Source of the DNA: Leeuwenhoekiella aestuarii
Lineage (GTDB): Bacteria; Bacteroidota; Bacteroidia; Flavobacteriales; Flavobacteriaceae
Length of the DNA stretch: 64,000 bases
NCBI RefSeq assembly: GCF_004104055.1
Contig: NZ_QOVJ01000001.1
Coordinates: 930,001-994,000 of the forward strand
Reading direction: 5' to 3'
Shown here: positions 5,500 to 63,077 of the stretch, one piece after another
Layout of the letters: the number at the start of each line of letters is the position of its first letter
Numbering within the stretch: the stretch's first letter is position 1
Translations under genes and position numbers: made by a program
The notes under the pieces: generated by a model
Told to the model about the DNA's origin: nothing
Databases searched by the model: none
Seen by the model: only the letters and a program-made list of their open reading frames with translations

Positions 5500-5727
5500 C
5501 TATTCCCCTCCTTTGGAGGGGGCAGGGGAGGAAAAGGCTAAAATATCTCCCGGCTGACAATCTAAAGCCTGGCAAATGGCCTCTAAGGTTGAAAAACGTA
5601 CCGCCTTGGCCTTACCCGATTTCAGGATCGAAAGATTGGCCTCGGTGATTCCTACGATTTCCGCGAGTTCTTTGCTTTTCATATTGTGGTCTGCCAATAC
5701 CTGATCTAAGTTGATGATTATGGGCAT
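5500..5727 (-). CDS. XRE/YozG-type HTH regulator
   Basis: This is a 75-residue DNA-binding protein that is almost all one Cro/C1-type helix-turn-helix: DQVLADHNMKSKELAEIVGI as the leading helices, then EANLSILKSGKAKAVRFSTLEAICQALDCQPGDIL. It lies 2 bp downstream of a DUF2975 membrane protein gene, a pairing common in bacteria (YozG family). Its last residues, PAPSKGGE and the stop, are encoded by a CCCCTCC-TTTG palindromic repeat, so the natural C-terminus may have been changed by insertion. It probably regulates its own operon through the palindrome at 6370-6384 (inference). Confidence 0.88.
   Translation of the reverse strand: MPIIINLDQVLADHNMKSKELAEIVGITEANLSILKSGKAKAVRFSTLEAICQALDCQPGDILAFSSPAPSKGGE
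5505..5528. repeat. Short palindromic repeat, CCCCTCC/GGAGGGG type
   Basis: CCCCTCC (5505-5511), TTT, then GGAGGGG (5515-5521), followed by a G/C-rich tail. It overlaps the final codons of the HTH gene. A near copy lies in bioF at 6552-6569, and a related CCCC...GGGG element lies at 62914-62935. Confidence 0.75.
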
Positions 5728-6413: not shown

Positions 6414-6469
6414 TAATTTTTAGTGAAATATTTTTCATTTGTATCTTTCGAAGAGCTCTGGGTAGGATG

Positions 6470-6477
6470 TATCTTTG
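6470..6477 (+). promoter_or_regulatory. -7 element of bioF, implying a leaderless or near-leaderless mRNA
   Basis: TATCTTTG matches TAnnTTTG and ends only 4 bases before the ATG at 6482. With the usual spacing the transcript would start at or within 1-2 bases of the start codon. No TTG is seen at the right distance upstream. Confidence 0.5.
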
Positions 6478-6481
6478 TGGG

Positions 6482-7684
6482 ATGCTAGCCAAAAAACTAC
6501 AGGATAAACTCAATCTTCGAAATGAAGCGAATGCTTTACGAAGTTTAAGCTCCCCTCCTTTGGAAGGGGTAAGTAAAGCCATTGATTTTTCTTCAAACGA
6601 TTACCTGGGTTTTTCTAAAAACGAGACCATTTTTCTCCGTGCCAGTGAAATCTTAGAAGAACAAAACCTGAAACAAAACGGAGCTACCGGTTCGCGTTTG
6701 CTTTCTGGGAATCACAAAATTTACGATCTGGCCGAAAATTATATCGCAGAAACACACGGTGTTGAAGCGGCCTTGATTTTTAACTCGGGGTATGATGCGA
6801 ATGTGGGTTTTTTCAGCAGTGTGCCCCAGCGGGGTGATGTGATTTTATATGATGAATTCATACACGCCAGCATTCGTGATGGGATTCAGATGAGCCATGC
6901 GAAGGCCTATAAATTCAAGCATAACGATTTAGAAGATCTGGTATCGAAATTGTCACTTCGAGCGCAGTCGAGAAGTCAGGTAAATACAAATCAAAGCGAA
7001 ATTTACGTAGTCACCGAATCGGTTTTTTCTATGGATGGAGATAGTCCCGATCTTAAAGCAATGACTCATTTATGTGAAAAGCACGAGGCCTGTTTTGTAG
7101 TTGATGAGGCGCACGCCCTAGGCGTGTTTGGGATGGGATTAGTCGATAATATGGCACTCGGGAACCCAGTTGTGAGGTTGGTGACTTTTGGGAAAGCTAT
7201 GGGTTGTCACGGAGCCGCTATTTTGGGCTCTGACCAACTCAAGTCTTATCTGGTTAATTTCGCCCGCAGCCTGATTTACACAACCGGTTTACCGCCGCAT
7301 AGTGTAGCAACCATCTTAGCTTCTTATAAACAGCTTGCAAATGTCACCCCGAGCGCAGTCGAGGGGCTTTCCGATGAAATGAAAAAGCTTAATGAAAACA
7401 TTCAATTTTTCCGAAAAGAAATTAAAACGAAAAAGCTTCAGGCGTATTTTATAGCAAGTGACTCCGCGATTCAATCGGCAGTAATTTCAGGAAATGAACG
7501 CGTTAAAGCCATTTCGCGAAAGCTTAAAGAAAACGGTTTTGACGTTAAAGCGATTCTTTCGCCCACGGTGCCTGCGGGACAAGAGCGCTTGCGATTTTGC
7601 CTACACAGTTACAATACGCAAAGTGAAATAGAAACCGTTCTGGAGCTTCTGGCAAAATCTTTAGAGGGATTCTCTGCAGATTAA
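6482..7684 (+). CDS. bioF: 8-amino-7-oxononanoate synthase
   Basis: This PLP enzyme condenses pimeloyl-ACP (or -CoA) with alanine in the first dedicated ring-forming stage of biotin synthesis. The ATG at 6482 gives MLAKKLQDKL, matching homologues; the upstream ATG at 6467 adds five residues lying inside the promoter. Class-II aminotransferase features are GATGSRLLSGNH, VDEAHALGVFG, and the PLP-lysine K238 in FGKAMGCHG. The length is 400 residues, slightly longer than usual (about 380). The excess is explained by three in-frame repeat insertions at about residues 23-29, 157-167 and 288-296. The gene heads bioF-bioD-bioA. Confidence 0.95.
   Translation: MLAKKLQDKLNLRNEANALRSLSSPPLEGVSKAIDFSSNDYLGFSKNETIFLRASEILEEQNLKQNGATGSRLLSGNHKIYDLAENYIAETHGVEAALIFNSGYDANVGFFSSVPQRGDVILYDEFIHASIRDGIQMSHAKAYKFKHNDLEDLVSKLSLRAQSRSQVNTNQSEIYVVTESVFSMDGDSPDLKAMTHLCEKHEACFVVDEAHALGVFGMGLVDNMALGNPVVRLVTFGKAMGCHGAAILGSDQLKSYLVNFARSLIYTTGLPPHSVATILASYKQLANVTPSAVEGLSDEMKKLNENIQFFRKEIKTKKLQAYFIASDSAIQSAVISGNERVKAISRKLKENGFDVKAILSPTVPAGQERLRFCLHSYNTQSEIETVLELLAKSLEGFSAD
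6551..6570. repeat. Palindromic repeat in bioF, copy 1 (CCCCTCC type)
   Basis: CCCCTCCTTTGGAAGGGG within bioF encodes SSPPLEG near residue 25, in the surface-exposed N-terminal part. It is almost the same as the repeat at the end of the HTH gene (5505-5521). Confidence 0.7.
6952..6980. repeat. Palindromic repeat in bioF, copy 2 (CGAGCGCAGTCGAG type)
   Basis: The core CTTCGAGCGCAGTCGAGAAG encodes LRAQSRS in bioF. The same core CGAGCGCAGTCGAG recurs at 7350-7363, 60797-60810 and 63001-63014. Confidence 0.85.
7343..7367. repeat. Palindromic repeat in bioF, copy 3 (CGAGCGCAGTCGAG type)
   Basis: CCCCGAGCGCAGTCGAGGGG within bioF encodes VTPSAVEGL near residues 288-296. The flanks (CCCC/GGGG) differ from those of copy 2, but they stay complementary to each other, which suggests selection on the stem. 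Confidence 0.85.
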
Positions 7685-59916: not shown

Positions 59917-62913
59917 ATGAATTACGATTTTAACGCGATTGAAAAGAAGTGGCAACAGTTTTGGAAAGAACACAAAACCTTTGAAGCCCAAAACAACATC
60001 GATAAGCCTAAATATTATGTGCTTGATATGTTTCCCTATCCCTCGGGAGCGGGCTTGCACGTGGGGCATCCGCTGGGATATATCGCCAGTGACATTTACG
60101 CGCGTTACAAGCGTCATCAGGGGTTTAATGTCTTGCATCCACAGGGATATGACTCGTTTGGACTTCCGGCGGAACAATATGCGATTCAAACCGGGCAACA
60201 CCCGGCAATCACTACCGAAACCAATATTGCCCGTTACCGCGAGCAACTGGATAAAATCGGTTTTTCGTTTGACTGGAGTCGCGAGGTACGCACGTCTAAC
60301 TCTGAATATTACAAGTGGACGCAGTGGATTTTTATTCAGCTTTTTGAAAGTTGGTACAACAACGACAGCAACAAAGCGGAACACATCGATACACTAATCG
60401 CCAAATTTGAAGCTGAAGGAAGTGCTTCGGTAAATGCCGTGTGTGATGAAGATGTAGAAGCTTTTACTGCTGAAGATTGGAATAACGCTTCTGCGAAAGC
60501 GAAACAAGAAATACTACTTAAGTACCGCTTAACCTACCTCGCAGAAACCGAAGTGAACTGGTGTCCGGCTTTGGGTACCGTATTGGCAAACGATGAGATT
60601 GTTAACGGCGTTTCAGAACGTGGCGGGCATCCCGTAGTGCGTAAAAAAATGACGCAGTGGAGTATGCGCATCAGCGCCTACGCGCAACGTTTATTAGACG
60701 GTTTGCAAAATATAGACTGGCCGCAGCCGCTTAAAGATTCACAAACCAACTGGATTGGTAGAAGTAAAGGAGCTTCTGTGAAATTTAATGTCACTTCGAG
60801 CGCAGTCGAGAAGTCTTACGAAGTTGAAGTCTTCACCACCCGTCCCGACACCATTTTTGGGGTGACTTTTATGACTCTGGCACCGGAGTTAGACCTGGTG
60901 CAGGAGGTTACCACACCTGAGCAAAAAGCGGAGGTTGATGACTATATTGAGGCGACGGCTAAACGTAGCGAGCGCGAGCGTATGGCTGATGTCAAGACCA
61001 TTTCGGGGGCATTTACCGGGGCTTATGCTGAGCATCCATTTACAAAAGAGCCCATCCCGATCTGGATAGGGGATTATGTGCTGGCCGGTTACGGTACTGG
61101 TGCGGTGATGGCCGTGCCTTGCGGGGATCAGCGGGACTGGGATTTTGCCAAGCATTTCAATATTCCCATTAAGAATATTTTTGACGGAGTTGATATCAGT
61201 GAGCAGGCTTACGCCGAAAAAGACAATACACCACTTAAAGATTCTGACTTTTTAAACGGACTTTCGTACAAGCAGGCGCTTCCTAAAGCGATTGAAGAAT
61301 TGGAGAAAATTGATGCCGGTAAGGGAAAAGTCAATTATCGTCTGCGTGATGCGGTGTTTAGCCGTCAACGCTATTGGGGCGAACCCTTCCCGGTTTATTA
61401 TGTGGACGGTATGCCGCAAATGATTGATGCGAAATACCTGCCATTAGAACTACCCGAAGTAGAAAAATACTTACCCACCGAAGAAGGGGAGCCGCCACTA
61501 GGCCGCGCTGATGTTTGGGCCTGGGACACCAACCAACATAAGGTGATAAGCAACGATAAAGTTGATAACGAAACCATTTTTCCTCTTGAACTAAACACCA
61601 TGCCCGGCTGGGCAGGAAGCAGCTGGTATTTCTTCAGATATATGGAGAAAGCCTTGCGTGACGAGACTTTTGCCTCAAAAGAAGCGATGGACTATTGGCA
61701 GGATGTAGATTTATACATTGGCGGTAGTGAACACGCGACAGGTCATTTACTATACAGCCGCTTCTGGGTGAAATTTTTAAAAGACCGCAGTTTTGCACCG
61801 GTTGAAGAACCTTTTAAAAAGCTGATCAATCAGGGAATGATTTTGGGAGAGAGTGCTTTTGCACAGTTTTATCTTTTGAATTGTTATAATATTTCAGATG
61901 GAGATGTTTCAAAAGATGTTCCAAGGCCTGAACTATATTTCTTATCAAAGGAAGAATATCAAGAAGGTCTCAATGGCACTGTTCCCCAAAAGATATACGA
62001 ATTACTTGAAAAGAAAAATGGACCTAAAGAATCTTGGACTTTTGATGTTAAAATTGGAGCTTCTGATTGTCTAAGAAGACATATTGATATAAGTTTATTA
62101 ATAGGTACTTCTGATAAATTGGATTTAGAATTGTTCCGAAAGGATAAGCGATACAAAGACCTTAAGGATTCAATTTTATTAGAAGATAATTACGAAACTT
62201 CAAGAGAGGTCGAAAAAATGTCTAAATCCAAATACAACGTGGTGAATCCCGATGATATTTGTGAAGAATACGGGGCTGATACGTTGCGTATGTATGAGAT
62301 GTTTTTAGGTCCGTTGGAGCAGGCAAAACCCTGGAATACGGCTGGAATCACCGGCGTACATAACTTCCTGAAGAAATTGTGGAAACTATACCATCAGGTG
62401 GACAAAGCAGGAAATCTGGGCGAATTTGAAGTTTCAGATGCGCCGGCTTCTAAAGAGGCGATGAAAGTGCTTCATAAAACCATCAAAAAGGTACAGGAAG
62501 ATATTGAGAACTTCAGTTTTAATACTTCAGTATCTACGTTTATGATCGCGGTTAATGAGCTTTCGGCGTTAAAATGCAACAACCGCGAAGTGCTGGAACC
62601 TTTGGCGGTTTTGATTTCGCCTTATGCGCCGCACATCGCAGAAGAATTGTGGAGTTTATTGGGTCACGAAGGTTCGATTGCAACGGCTCCGTTTCCGGAG
62701 TTTGACGCCAAGCATTTGGTAGAAAGCAGCAAAGAATACCCGATTTCGTTTAACGGTAAAATGCGATTTACGATGGAGCTTCCACTAGGTCTTTCTAAAG
62801 AAGAAATCGAGAAAGCAGTACGTGCTCACGAGAAAACTCAGGAATATCTGGGCGGTCGCGAACCTAATAAAGTCATTGTGGTTCCCGGGAAGATCGTGAA
62901 TTTTGTAGGCTAG
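59917..62913 (+). CDS. leuS: Leucyl-tRNA synthetase, with a divergent segment
   Basis: This enzyme charges tRNA-Leu. From ATG at 59917 (MNYDFNAIEKKWQQFWKEHK) it has 998 residues, long for the family (about 930-960 in relatives). Class I motifs are HVGH (48-51) and KMSKS (767-771). The CP1 editing domain holds TTRPDTIFGVTFM. Two oddities are seen. A repeat encoding TSSAVEK is inserted ahead of that motif (60790-60815). About 120 residues before KMSKS (the leucine-specific region, 61850-62214) are AT-rich and unlike the usual sequence. Ends are canonical and the frame is open throughout, so it should be functional. The longer frame from 59890 starts in the repeat and is not used. Confidence 0.96.
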   Translation: MNYDFNAIEKKWQQFWKEHKTFEAQNNIDKPKYYVLDMFPYPSGAGLHVGHPLGYIASDIYARYKRHQGFNVLHPQGYDSFGLPAEQYAIQTGQHPAITTETNIARYREQLDKIGFSFDWSREVRTSNSEYYKWTQWIFIQLFESWYNNDSNKAEHIDTLIAKFEAEGSASVNAVCDEDVEAFTAEDWNNASAKAKQEILLKYRLTYLAETEVNWCPALGTVLANDEIVNGVSERGGHPVVRKKMTQWSMRISAYAQRLLDGLQNIDWPQPLKDSQTNWIGRSKGASVKFNVTSSAVEKSYEVEVFTTRPDTIFGVTFMTLAPELDLVQEVTTPEQKAEVDDYIEATAKRSERERMADVKTISGAFTGAYAEHPFTKEPIPIWIGDYVLAGYGTGAVMAVPCGDQRDWDFAKHFNIPIKNIFDGVDISEQAYAEKDNTPLKDSDFLNGLSYKQALPKAIEELEKIDAGKGKVNYRLRDAVFSRQRYWGEPFPVYYVDGMPQMIDAKYLPLELPEVEKYLPTEEGEPPLGRADVWAWDTNQHKVISNDKVDNETIFPLELNTMPGWAGSSWYFFRYMEKALRDETFASKEAMDYWQDVDLYIGGSEHATGHLLYSRFWVKFLKDRSFAPVEEPFKKLINQGMILGESAFAQFYLLNCYNISDGDVSKDVPRPELYFLSKEEYQEGLNGTVPQKIYELLEKKNGPKESWTFDVKIGASDCLRRHIDISLLIGTSDKLDLELFRKDKRYKDLKDSILLEDNYETSREVEKMSKSKYNVVNPDDICEEYGADTLRMYEMFLGPLEQAKPWNTAGITGVHNFLKKLWKLYHQVDKAGNLGEFEVSDAPASKEAMKVLHKTIKKVQEDIENFSFNTSVSTFMIAVNELSALKCNNREVLEPLAVLISPYAPHIAEELWSLLGHEGSIATAPFPEFDAKHLVESSKEYPISFNGKMRFTMELPLGLSKEEIEKAVRAHEKTQEYLGGREPNKVIVVPGKIVNFVG
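60790..60816. repeat. Palindromic repeat in leuS (CGAGCGCAGTCGAG type)
   Basis: CACTTCGAGCGCAGTCGAGA with a following AGTC is nearly the same as bioF copy 2 (6952-6980). It is read in frame as VTSSAVEKS, just before the conserved TTRPDT strand of the editing domain. Confidence 0.85.
61850..62214 (+). other. Divergent AT-rich segment within leuS
   Basis: The segment covers residues of about 645-766, between the conserved LINQGMILG and VEKMSKS. By hand count its 60-base lines contain about 25-38% G+C, against about 40-50% in adjacent leuS lines. Codon choice shifts to A/T-ending codons. The end (HIDISLLIGTSDKLDLELFR) still aligns by eye with the usual family sequence. Confidence 0.7.
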
Positions 62914-63077
62914 CCCCTTAACCCCAAAGGGGGAGTTGAAATAGGAAATGCAAAATTTGAAATACGAGGTTTCAGATTTCTGGAATTCTCAGTGTCACAT
63001 CGAGCGCAGTCGAGATGCTGCCTTTAAACGTGCCGGTCTCTGAGTGGCGCGACGAAAGGAGCGGTGTATCGAAGTGA
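62914..63077. repeat. Repeat cluster downstream of leuS
   Basis: The cluster begins with CCCCTTAACCCCAAAGGGGG (about 62915-62934), a palindromic element. An 83-bp element (62995-63077) follows, with inverted ends TCACATCGA and TCGAAGTGA and the CGAGCGCAGTCGAG core at 63001-63014. This looks like the full-length form of the element of which the bioF and leuS insertions are the short left-end form. No gene is seen here. Confidence 0.75.

What the first reader, a model, noticed from the sequence alone, without database searches (positions are those of the whole stretch)
6549..7367. Three palindromic repeats inserted in frame inside bioF
bioF contains one CCCCTCC-type and two CGAGCGCAGTCGAG-type palindromes, all read in frame without stop codons, and the protein is about 20 residues longer than usual. 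The two copies of the second type differ in flanking stem bases (ACTTC/GAAGT against ACCCC/GGGG) but each keeps self-complementarity, so selection or a conversion process may maintain the stem. Repeats that tolerate translation are known from Rickettsia palindromic elements; I know of no such description for this family, though I cannot rule it out.
Basis: partly seen in the sequence, partly recalled or inferred. Interest (0 to 1): 0.72.

Follow-up and report, generated by a model that had tools for sequence, protein, structure and literature searches.

The report
Nuclease-linked palindromes lodged inside bioF
Short hairpin-forming repeats, which elsewhere form the ends of tiny mobile nuclease genes, sit in frame in loops of two enzymes (BioF and LeuS) of this marine bacterium, and related bacteria carry different repeats, or a whole nuclease domain, in the same loops.

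Summary
Confirmed. bioF (6467-7684) holds one C-rich palindrome and two copies of a TGTC-headed palindrome (REP-A), all in frame. REP-A is a dispersed family: 10 exact 14-mers in the genome, none for the reversed control; its outer stem covaries between copies. The host is a Leeuwenhoekiella. The first REP-A site is a loop in which 34 of 81 homologues carry a repeat core (38 of 5300 other windows in the same genes), of several families, in both orientations and two frames. The window's leuS carries REP-A in a loop that holds a complete in-frame DUF559 domain in 8 of 13 Leeuwenhoekiella. Elsewhere REP-A and REP-B form the inverted ends of 0.35-0.4 kb units that encode small GIY-YIG nucleases, and C-rich palindromes flank DUF559 genes. 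GTC-tagged palindromes flank GIY-YIG genes in 12 of 14 plasmid-collection records inspected, over three phyla. Best reading: solo ends of nuclease-driven minimal mobile elements, tolerated in permissive loops; mobilisation by the nuclease is inferred. In-frame REPs are known in other taxa; a GIY-YIG/repeat link in Neisseria (Ssn) is recalled, not verified.

The parts
6467..7684 (+). bioF (8-amino-7-oxononanoate synthase), 405 codons, host gene of three palindromes
   Evidence: ORF; PF00155; 40 distinct solved sequences at E<=1e-20 incl. 8dle, 1bs0
6552..6569 (+). site 0: C-rich palindrome CCCCTCCTTTGGAAGGGG (of the type seen beside DUF559 genes), read S-P-P-L-E-G; a perfect form in L. polynyae L036, a decayed one in L037
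6952..6976 (+). site 1: REP-A GTCACTTCGAGCGCAGTCGAGAAGT, read L-S-L-R-A-Q-S-R-S; loop between KFKHND and TESVFSMDGD
7343..7366 (+). site 2: REP-A GTCACCCCGAGCGCAGTCGAGGGG, read N-V-T-P-S-A-V-E-G; of the 14 genes aligned only in window, L036, L037
59920..62913 (+). leuS, second gene of the window with an in-frame REP-A
60790..60814 (+). REP-A inside the leuS editing domain (GTCACTTCGAGCGCAGTCGAGAAGT, read N-V-T-S-S-A-V-E-K-S); same loop holds DUF559 in 8 of 13 Leeuwenhoekiella
62994..63017 (+). REP-A copy between leuS and the next ORF (GTCACATCGAGCGCAGTCGAGATG)
5505..5521 (+). second exact copy in the genome of the 13-mer CCCCTCCTTTGGA; its reverse strand encodes the last residues (..SSPAPSKGGE) of a small HTH protein 5500-5727 (-)

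Best explanation
The three palindromes in bioF (and the one in leuS) are solo, non-autonomous copies of the terminal palindromes of minimal mobile elements made of one small nuclease gene between inverted hairpin repeats. REP-A and REP-B belong to GIY-YIG nuclease units, the C-rich palindrome to DUF559 (REase-like) units. Copies arrive at many places. Inside genes only those survive that keep the frame, lack stops and fall in tolerant loops, so a few loops (BioF after KFKHND, LeuS editing domain) are found occupied again and again. Shown: dispersed family, stem covariation, extra length relative to homologues, repeated occupancy by different families, pairing of repeat type with nuclease clade. 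Inferred: that the nuclease moves the repeats, probably by cutting single-stranded or hairpin DNA, and that the peptide is merely tolerated.
For: Dispersed family: 10 exact cores, control 0; core present in 10 of 13 Leeuwenhoekiella genomes. Stem covariation, all four Watson-Crick pair types at pair 3. Loop occupancy 34 of 81 against 38 of 5300 windows and 26 of 4050 shuffles; by a stricter hairpin test 25 of 81 loops, 4.7 hairpins per kb in the loop against 0.8 elsewhere in the genes. On a tree built without the loop at least 24 state changes; supported sister pairs differ in family or orientation (six of the labels set by eye). LeuS loop: of 50 Flavobacteriaceae read (of 60 searched), 31 have the 14-aa form, 7 hold a GTC-headed REP by eye, 4 a DUF559 domain; in 13 Leeuwenhoekiella 4 short, 1 REP-A (own), 8 DUF559. 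REP-A as inverted ends of GIY-YIG units in two genomes read and, by coordinates, a third; a ~414-bp REP-B/GIY-YIG unit between bioD and bioA in four relatives, not seen in the window, L037 and L038. Both-side REP flanks: 7 of 30 GIY-YIG loci against 1 of 181 control ORFs. Repeat type against GIY-YIG tree: 4 changes, the least possible for 5 types; the ten shuffles printed gave 13-17. GTC-tagged palindromes beside GIY-YIG in 12 of 14 records of other groups. DUF559: C-rich palindromes on both sides in 15 of 23 loci, 5 of 1212 random anchors. 8 of 39 REP-A copies lie in long ORFs, two of them doubtful.
Against: No movement was observed and no target-site duplication or clean empty site was established. 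The net gain in LeuS is 4 codons, less than one REP, so integration was not simple insertion or was followed by deletion. Some turnover of the BioF loop looks like allele exchange (loops of L040 and L041 are alike including flanks), so the 24 changes are not 24 insertions. 17 of 30 family GIY-YIG loci showed no REP within 160 bp, and some of the 13 one-sided calls look like chance hairpins. Several GIY-YIG clades of the genus have no such flanks, and one of them (L271) has long hairpins of another make. In the third clade the head in Leeuwenhoekiella reads TTC, not GTC. Two of the 14 records of other groups have no palindrome and one has it on one side only. The window's genome has only two small GIY-YIG genes, a clade-I one with an internal stop and a clade-III one, so nothing shows that its REP-A copies can move now.
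Confidence: 0.7

Rival explanations
1. Ordinary REPs moved in trans by a RAYT (TnpA-REP, HUH Y1 transposase).
For: Y1_Tnp (PF01797) matches occur in 7 of 13 Leeuwenhoekiella at E<=0.001; RAYTs are the established partner of GTAG REPs (PMC3733652, PMC6006769, parts read).
Against: Own genome has none at E<=0.001. The RAYT-like genes L146, L147 and L151 have CACACGATGCAATCGTGCGG or CCGCGCGATTGTATCGCGTGG-type palindromes around them, and none of the 11 loci holds an exact REP-A core.
Confidence: 0.08
2. The hairpins are kept because the bioF or leuS mRNA, or the DNA, needs a structure there (pausing, regulation).
For: Stem covariation between copies.
Against: Orthologous copies decay; 47 of 81 BioF loops hold no recognised core; no Rfam match at gathering threshold in the window; unrelated palindromes replace each other at the site.
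Confidence: 0.04
3. The added peptides are selected: new charged surface segments useful to the protein.
For: Recurrence at the same loops; peptides are charged (RAQSRS, ERSRSP, RHSELVSESH, EMLKRVQHD).
Against: The same element is read in different frames and both orientations, sister species differ, and 47 of 81 loops lack a recognised core.
Confidence: 0.08
4. Few insertions long ago, then spread of loop alleles between species by recombination of bioF.
For: L040 and L041 share a loop with flanks while L039, the supported sister of L041, shares the REP-A loop of the window.
Against: Families, frames and orientations differ too much for one origin; nested repeats and the LeuS loop point to repeated arrival.
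Confidence: 0.25

Closest known systems
CGTC-tagged REPs (Di Nocera, De Gregorio and Rocco 2013, PMC3733652; abstract, sections 6 and 15, part 1 of 2 of section 17 and passages read)
   Same: GTC-type unpaired head (CGTC, often TGTC), short stem-loop, inverted dimers, some copies in frame inside genes incl. tRNA synthetases; different REPs at about the same site of recB in two Xanthomonas; no dedicated transposase known. REP-B fits stem 8, loop 5, AT start.
   Different: REP-A has loop 6 with tandem G.A and usually no A-T first pair; tails are not CCA. A nuclease partner and repeated occupancy of one loop across a family are not in the parts read.
Rickettsia palindromic elements (RPE)
   Same: Palindromes read in frame in conserved enzymes; one such protein (Gmk) is active (PMC2229807, passages read).
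   Different: RPEs are 105-146 bp in that review; here about 25 bp. RPE-4 and RPE-6 are counted as CGTC REPs in PMC3733652. No nuclease partner in the passages read.
RAYT/TnpA-REP with GTAG REPs (PMC3733652; PMC6006769, passages and section 25 read)
   Same: Hairpin repeats flanking a small nuclease-type gene, solo copies elsewhere.
   Different: Y1 HUH transposase there; GIY-YIG or DUF559 here; head is TGTC, not GTAG.
Ssn GIY-YIG single-strand nucleases and their repeated target in Neisseria (recalled from memory, Nature Communications 2025; the DOI I tried is not held; nothing read)
   Same: As recalled: small GIY-YIG nuclease with a cognate sequence repeated hundreds of times. The Neisseria locus seen here has such flanks.
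   Different: As recalled the paper concerns ssDNA cutting and transformation; in-frame copies in enzymes and DUF559 units are, as far as I recall, not treated.

Membership tests
CGTC/TGTC REP superfamily | unpaired GTC-type head next to the stem | tested here: met
   GTC within 8 nt upstream of the core in 36 of 40 REP-A copies; also on the REP-B copies beside GIY-YIG genes
CGTC/TGTC REP superfamily | stem 8-9 bp, loop 4-5, A-T in first two pairs, CCA-like tail | tested here: not met
   REP-A: loop 6, tandem G.A, pair 5 Watson-Crick in 14 of 40. REP-B has stem 8 and loop 5, mostly AT or AC start, tail CTC
CGTC/TGTC REP superfamily | dispersed multi-copy, mostly extragenic | tested here: met
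   31 of 39 REP-A copies examined lie outside ORFs of 150 codons or more
RAYT-associated REP | RAYT gene flanked by the same palindrome | tested here: not met
   (own genome and 12 others of the genus)
Rickettsia palindromic elements | in-frame insertion in conserved protein genes | tested here: met
Rickettsia palindromic elements | sequence homology to an RPE family | not tested
   no Rickettsia sequence was fetched
Ssn-type GIY-YIG/target pair | small GIY-YIG protein linked to its own repeat | tested here: met
   PF01541; pairing on the tree; flanks in 12 of 14 records of other groups
Ssn-type GIY-YIG/target pair | site-specific cutting of single-stranded DNA | not testable with these tools
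   needs biochemistry; the feature itself is recalled

The most novel reading that the evidence does not exclude
REPs of the CGTC/TGTC superfamily, across phyla, are the ends of one-gene GIY-YIG transposable units, and C-rich palindromes are the ends of DUF559 units; both move through hairpin DNA, use resident hairpin loops as targets, and load themselves in frame into a few permissive loops of essential enzymes, so that a complete nuclease can ride inside LeuS.
Probability: 0.4. Interest if true: 0.87.

Novelty: new variant of a known kind. Interest (0 to 1): 0.68.

Why it matters
It proposes an enzyme for a large class of bacterial repeats that the 2013 survey left without one, and makes it testable: each repeat type goes with one nuclease clade. 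It also shows loops of housekeeping enzymes serving as recurrent harbours for what looks like selfish DNA, up to a whole in-frame nuclease domain, which bears on how proteins gain insertions and on gene annotation in Flavobacteriaceae.

Tried and rejected
RAYT as the mobiliser was looked for first and dropped. RNA fold energy of 60-nt windows gave only a weak signal (21 of 81 loops in the lowest 5%), with several windows tried inside each loop, so it is not used. Rfam gave nothing at the gathering threshold. Nested repeats at the GAGCG^CAGTCGA loop centre: a scan of all DNA then held gave four hits, three convincing (L036 twice, L074) and one (L132) that looks like chance. In L036 site 1 the extra repeat sits in a second half-copy of REP-A behind an intact one. 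L083, L089 and L109 were read by eye only. Target preference for loops is therefore a lead, not a result. The link of REP-A copy number with presence of clade-I GIY-YIG (7 genomes with, 6 without, one-sided p 0.018) ignores relatedness, and my clade calls were by eye.

Row choices; 80 of the 101 BioF relatives reported were held, plus the window; 50 of the 60 genomes, namely the 30 best-scoring loci and 20 more; four of these (G014, G035, G048, G062) were taken because their match was split at the loop, and 10 genomes were not read, so the DUF559 share is not an unbiased rate. Repeat types in LeuS were read by eye, several are decayed; 34 labels came from the script and 6 (L042, L050, L074, L082, L084, L089) by eye; 23 of the 30 DUF559 loci held (31 matches) showed the search motif and were tested; 30 loci; in L305, L319 and L322 my script picked a wrong or broken frame. 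Its controls come from loci picked for REP-A, leuS or GIY-YIG, which raises the control rate; 51 proteins passed length and motif filters (L234, L251 and L273 did not; L250 is in twice); 19 without a recognised repeat were left out of the count of changes; I ran 100 shuffles but printed 10; 14 of 33 records were opened, chosen to cover different genera.

Literature: 10 searches of open-licence PMC papers only, mostly seen as listings. GIY-YIG with 'extragenic palindromic': 0 papers. GIY-YIG, palindromic and REPs together: only a fungal mitogenome paper among the 15 of 258 listed. DUF559 with 'palindromic': two papers, on other matters by their abstracts; no DUF559 paper among the 15 of 1,561 listed.

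Full report
What is there. The window belongs to a Leeuwenhoekiella (Flavobacteriaceae): the best BioF relatives are L. polynyae and a Leeuwenhoekiella MAG at 87-88%. bioF is 6467-7684. It contains a C-rich palindrome (6552-6569) and two copies of what I call REP-A: GTCACTTCGAGCGCAGTCGAGAAGT at 6952-6976 and GTCACCCCGAGCGCAGTCGAGGGG at 7343-7366. REP-A is not a plain Watson-Crick palindrome: four outer pairs close on CGAG...CGAG, which lets two G.A pairs stack between C-G and G-C (tandem G.A; inferred from sequence). A search for that architecture finds four hairpins in 64 kb (shuffled mean 0.73): the two in bioF, one in leuS and one intergenic.

More than chance. The 14-mer core occurs 10 times in the genome, its reversed control never; a shifted 14-mer with up to two mismatches gives 23 places against 3 for the control. 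Across 40 distinct copies from the window's genome and its genus, outer pairs 1 to 4 are Watson-Crick in 37, 38, 38 and 37 of 40, although pairs 3 and 4 use four and three different base pairs; shuffling partners gives means of 12.0 and 16.2 at pairs 3 and 4. GTC stands within 8 bases upstream in 36 of 40. So the stem and the GTC head are features of the family. Of 39 copies examined for context, 8 lie in ORFs of 150 codons or more (two of them, near the start of a gene that I read as tex, are doubtful) and 31 do not; as most of a bacterial genome is coding, this means strong purging from genes. All three forward frames of REP-A are open, and two of the three reverse frames.

Insertion and recurrence in BioF. 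In a DNA alignment of 14 genes, site 2 is seen only in the window, L036 and L037, and site 1 in these plus L038, L039 and L048. I took the site-1 loop from 81 BioF genes (window and the 80 relatives held of 101 reported). Its length runs from 19 to 42 residues. 34 of 81 loops hold the core of a repeat family within 2-3 mismatches; the same test is met by 38 of 5300 windows elsewhere in the same genes and 26 of 4050 shuffles. A strict hairpin test finds one in 25 of 81 loops, 4.7 per kb of loop against 0.8 per kb elsewhere in the genes. The families are REP-A in the frame RAQSR (window and close kin, a Polaribacter), REP-A in the frame ERSR with other outer stems (Algibacter, Flavivirga, Hyunsoonleella and others), REP-B (GTCATTCTGAACTTGTTTCAGAATCTC, read RHSELVSES), REP-B on the other strand (read EMLKRVQHD), and REP-C (TGAGCTTGTCGAA). 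On a tree made without the loop the state changes at least 24 times; L039/L041, L064/L066 and L068/L073 are supported sister pairs with different repeats or opposite orientation. Part of this may be exchange of loop alleles, since the loops of L040 and L041 agree including flanks. In L. polynyae both bioF REP-A sites carry another repeat, between GAGCG and CAGTCGAG (at site 1 in a second half-copy of REP-A), and one Flavivirga has a third repeat at the same point.

The same in LeuS. The window's leuS has REP-A in its editing domain (PF13603 covers residues 277-461). I read the corresponding loop in 50 of 60 Flavobacteriaceae genomes searched. It is 14 residues in 31. Of the 19 longer ones 7 hold, by eye, a GTC-headed repeat (REP-A; CGTCATTGCGAGCGAAGCGAAGCAATCTC and decayed kin; an inverted REP-B pair; and others), 4 hold a DUF559 domain (Pfam), and 8 are something else or unclear. 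In 13 Leeuwenhoekiella the loop is short in 4, REP-A in the window's genome only, and a whole in-frame DUF559 domain in 8. 15 of 23 DUF559 loci tested have C-rich palindromes on both sides, against 5 of 1212 random anchors. The bioF site-0 palindrome is of this kind.

The nuclease link. Pairs of inverted REP-A copies about 355 bp apart enclose a gene for a 104-residue GIY-YIG protein in two genomes read; by coordinates a third genome has such a pair 357 bp apart around its GIY-YIG gene (G003:C20, and one side read). In the genus the REP type goes with the GIY-YIG clade: REP-A or REP-C with one, REP-B with a second, a CCGCGAAGGCGG palindrome (head TTC here) with a third; other clades showed no such flank by the test used, one (L271) having long hairpins of another make. 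A REP-B/GIY-YIG unit of about 414 bp sits between bioD and bioA in L036, L039, L040 and L041; it was not seen in the window, L037 or L038. In the family, 38 of 60 genomes have a relative of the REP-B-type protein. The 30 loci held show a GTC-tagged hairpin on at least one side in 13 and on both in 7; control ORFs 23 and 1 of 181. A tree of 51 GIY-YIG proteins, 32 with a recognised repeat, needs 4 changes of repeat type for 5 types, the minimum; the ten shuffles printed gave 13-17. In the plasmid collection 33 records hold a relative of a third-clade protein; of the 14 opened (Bacteroidota, Cyanobacteriota, Pseudomonadota) 12 have a GTC-tagged palindrome within 180 bp of the match on at least one side and 11 on both. 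Photobacterium and Rhizobium tumorigenes have none there.

How it most likely works. One small nuclease gene between two hairpins is the autonomous form; single hairpins are its offspring. The nuclease presumably recognises the hairpin, perhaps as single-stranded DNA, and frees or integrates it. I recall that a GIY-YIG family called Ssn cuts single-stranded DNA at a repeated Neisseria sequence; I could not read that paper here. Insertions in genes are mostly lost; those in frame in a tolerant loop remain, then decay. The window's genome has two small GIY-YIG genes, a clade-I one with a stop inside and a clade-III one, one DUF559 gene, free-standing, and no Y1 transposase match, so its REP-A copies may now be relics. 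What is missing is any sight of movement, a clean empty site, or biochemistry.

Known and new. In-frame palindromes in genes are known from Rickettsia and from GTAG and CGTC REPs (PMC3733652, PMC2229807; parts read as stated). Not met in 10 searches of an open-licence library, mostly seen as listings: the family in Flavobacteriaceae, one loop used again and again by unrelated repeats, a whole DUF559 domain in LeuS between such palindromes, and the broad pairing of CGTC-type REPs with GIY-YIG clades (perhaps partly covered by the recalled Ssn work).

Noticed in passing
window 5500-5727 (-): A small HTH_26 protein ends in ..SSPAPSKGGE encoded by the only other exact copy of the 13-mer CCCCTCCTTTGGA; the HTH domain match stops at residue 65 of 75, before that tail.
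   Followed up: partly
L036, L039, L040, L041 (between bioD and bioA): A complete REP-B/GIY-YIG unit of about 414 bp lies in the biotin gene cluster of four relatives; it was not seen in the window, L037 and L038.
   Followed up: yes
L146, L147, L151: RAYT-like genes of Leeuwenhoekiella with CGCGATTGTATCGCG- or CACGATGCAATCGTG-type palindromes nearby, a separate REP system.
   Followed up: partly
L125 (G002:C1:1906090-1907072): Four REP-A copies with the same flanks at about 320-bp spacing in one orientation, a tandem array.
   Followed up: no
L126 and L205: A gene that I read as metH has a REP-A core with a partly decayed stem in one species and an in-frame DUF559 domain at another point in a second species.
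   Followed up: partly
L158, L326, L327: Some LeuS loops of normal length are made of a TTCAGAATTCAGAATTC microsatellite.
   Followed up: no
G066:C4:563283 and G002:C1:2064623: GIY-YIG matches inside open frames of 874 and 377 residues, possible in-frame GIY-YIG insertions in larger genes; only the second stretch was fetched (L277).
   Followed up: no
L162: LeuS loop with a perfect 12-bp-arm palindrome AAGATTATTGCC-gaa-GGCAATAATCTT, family unknown.
   Followed up: no
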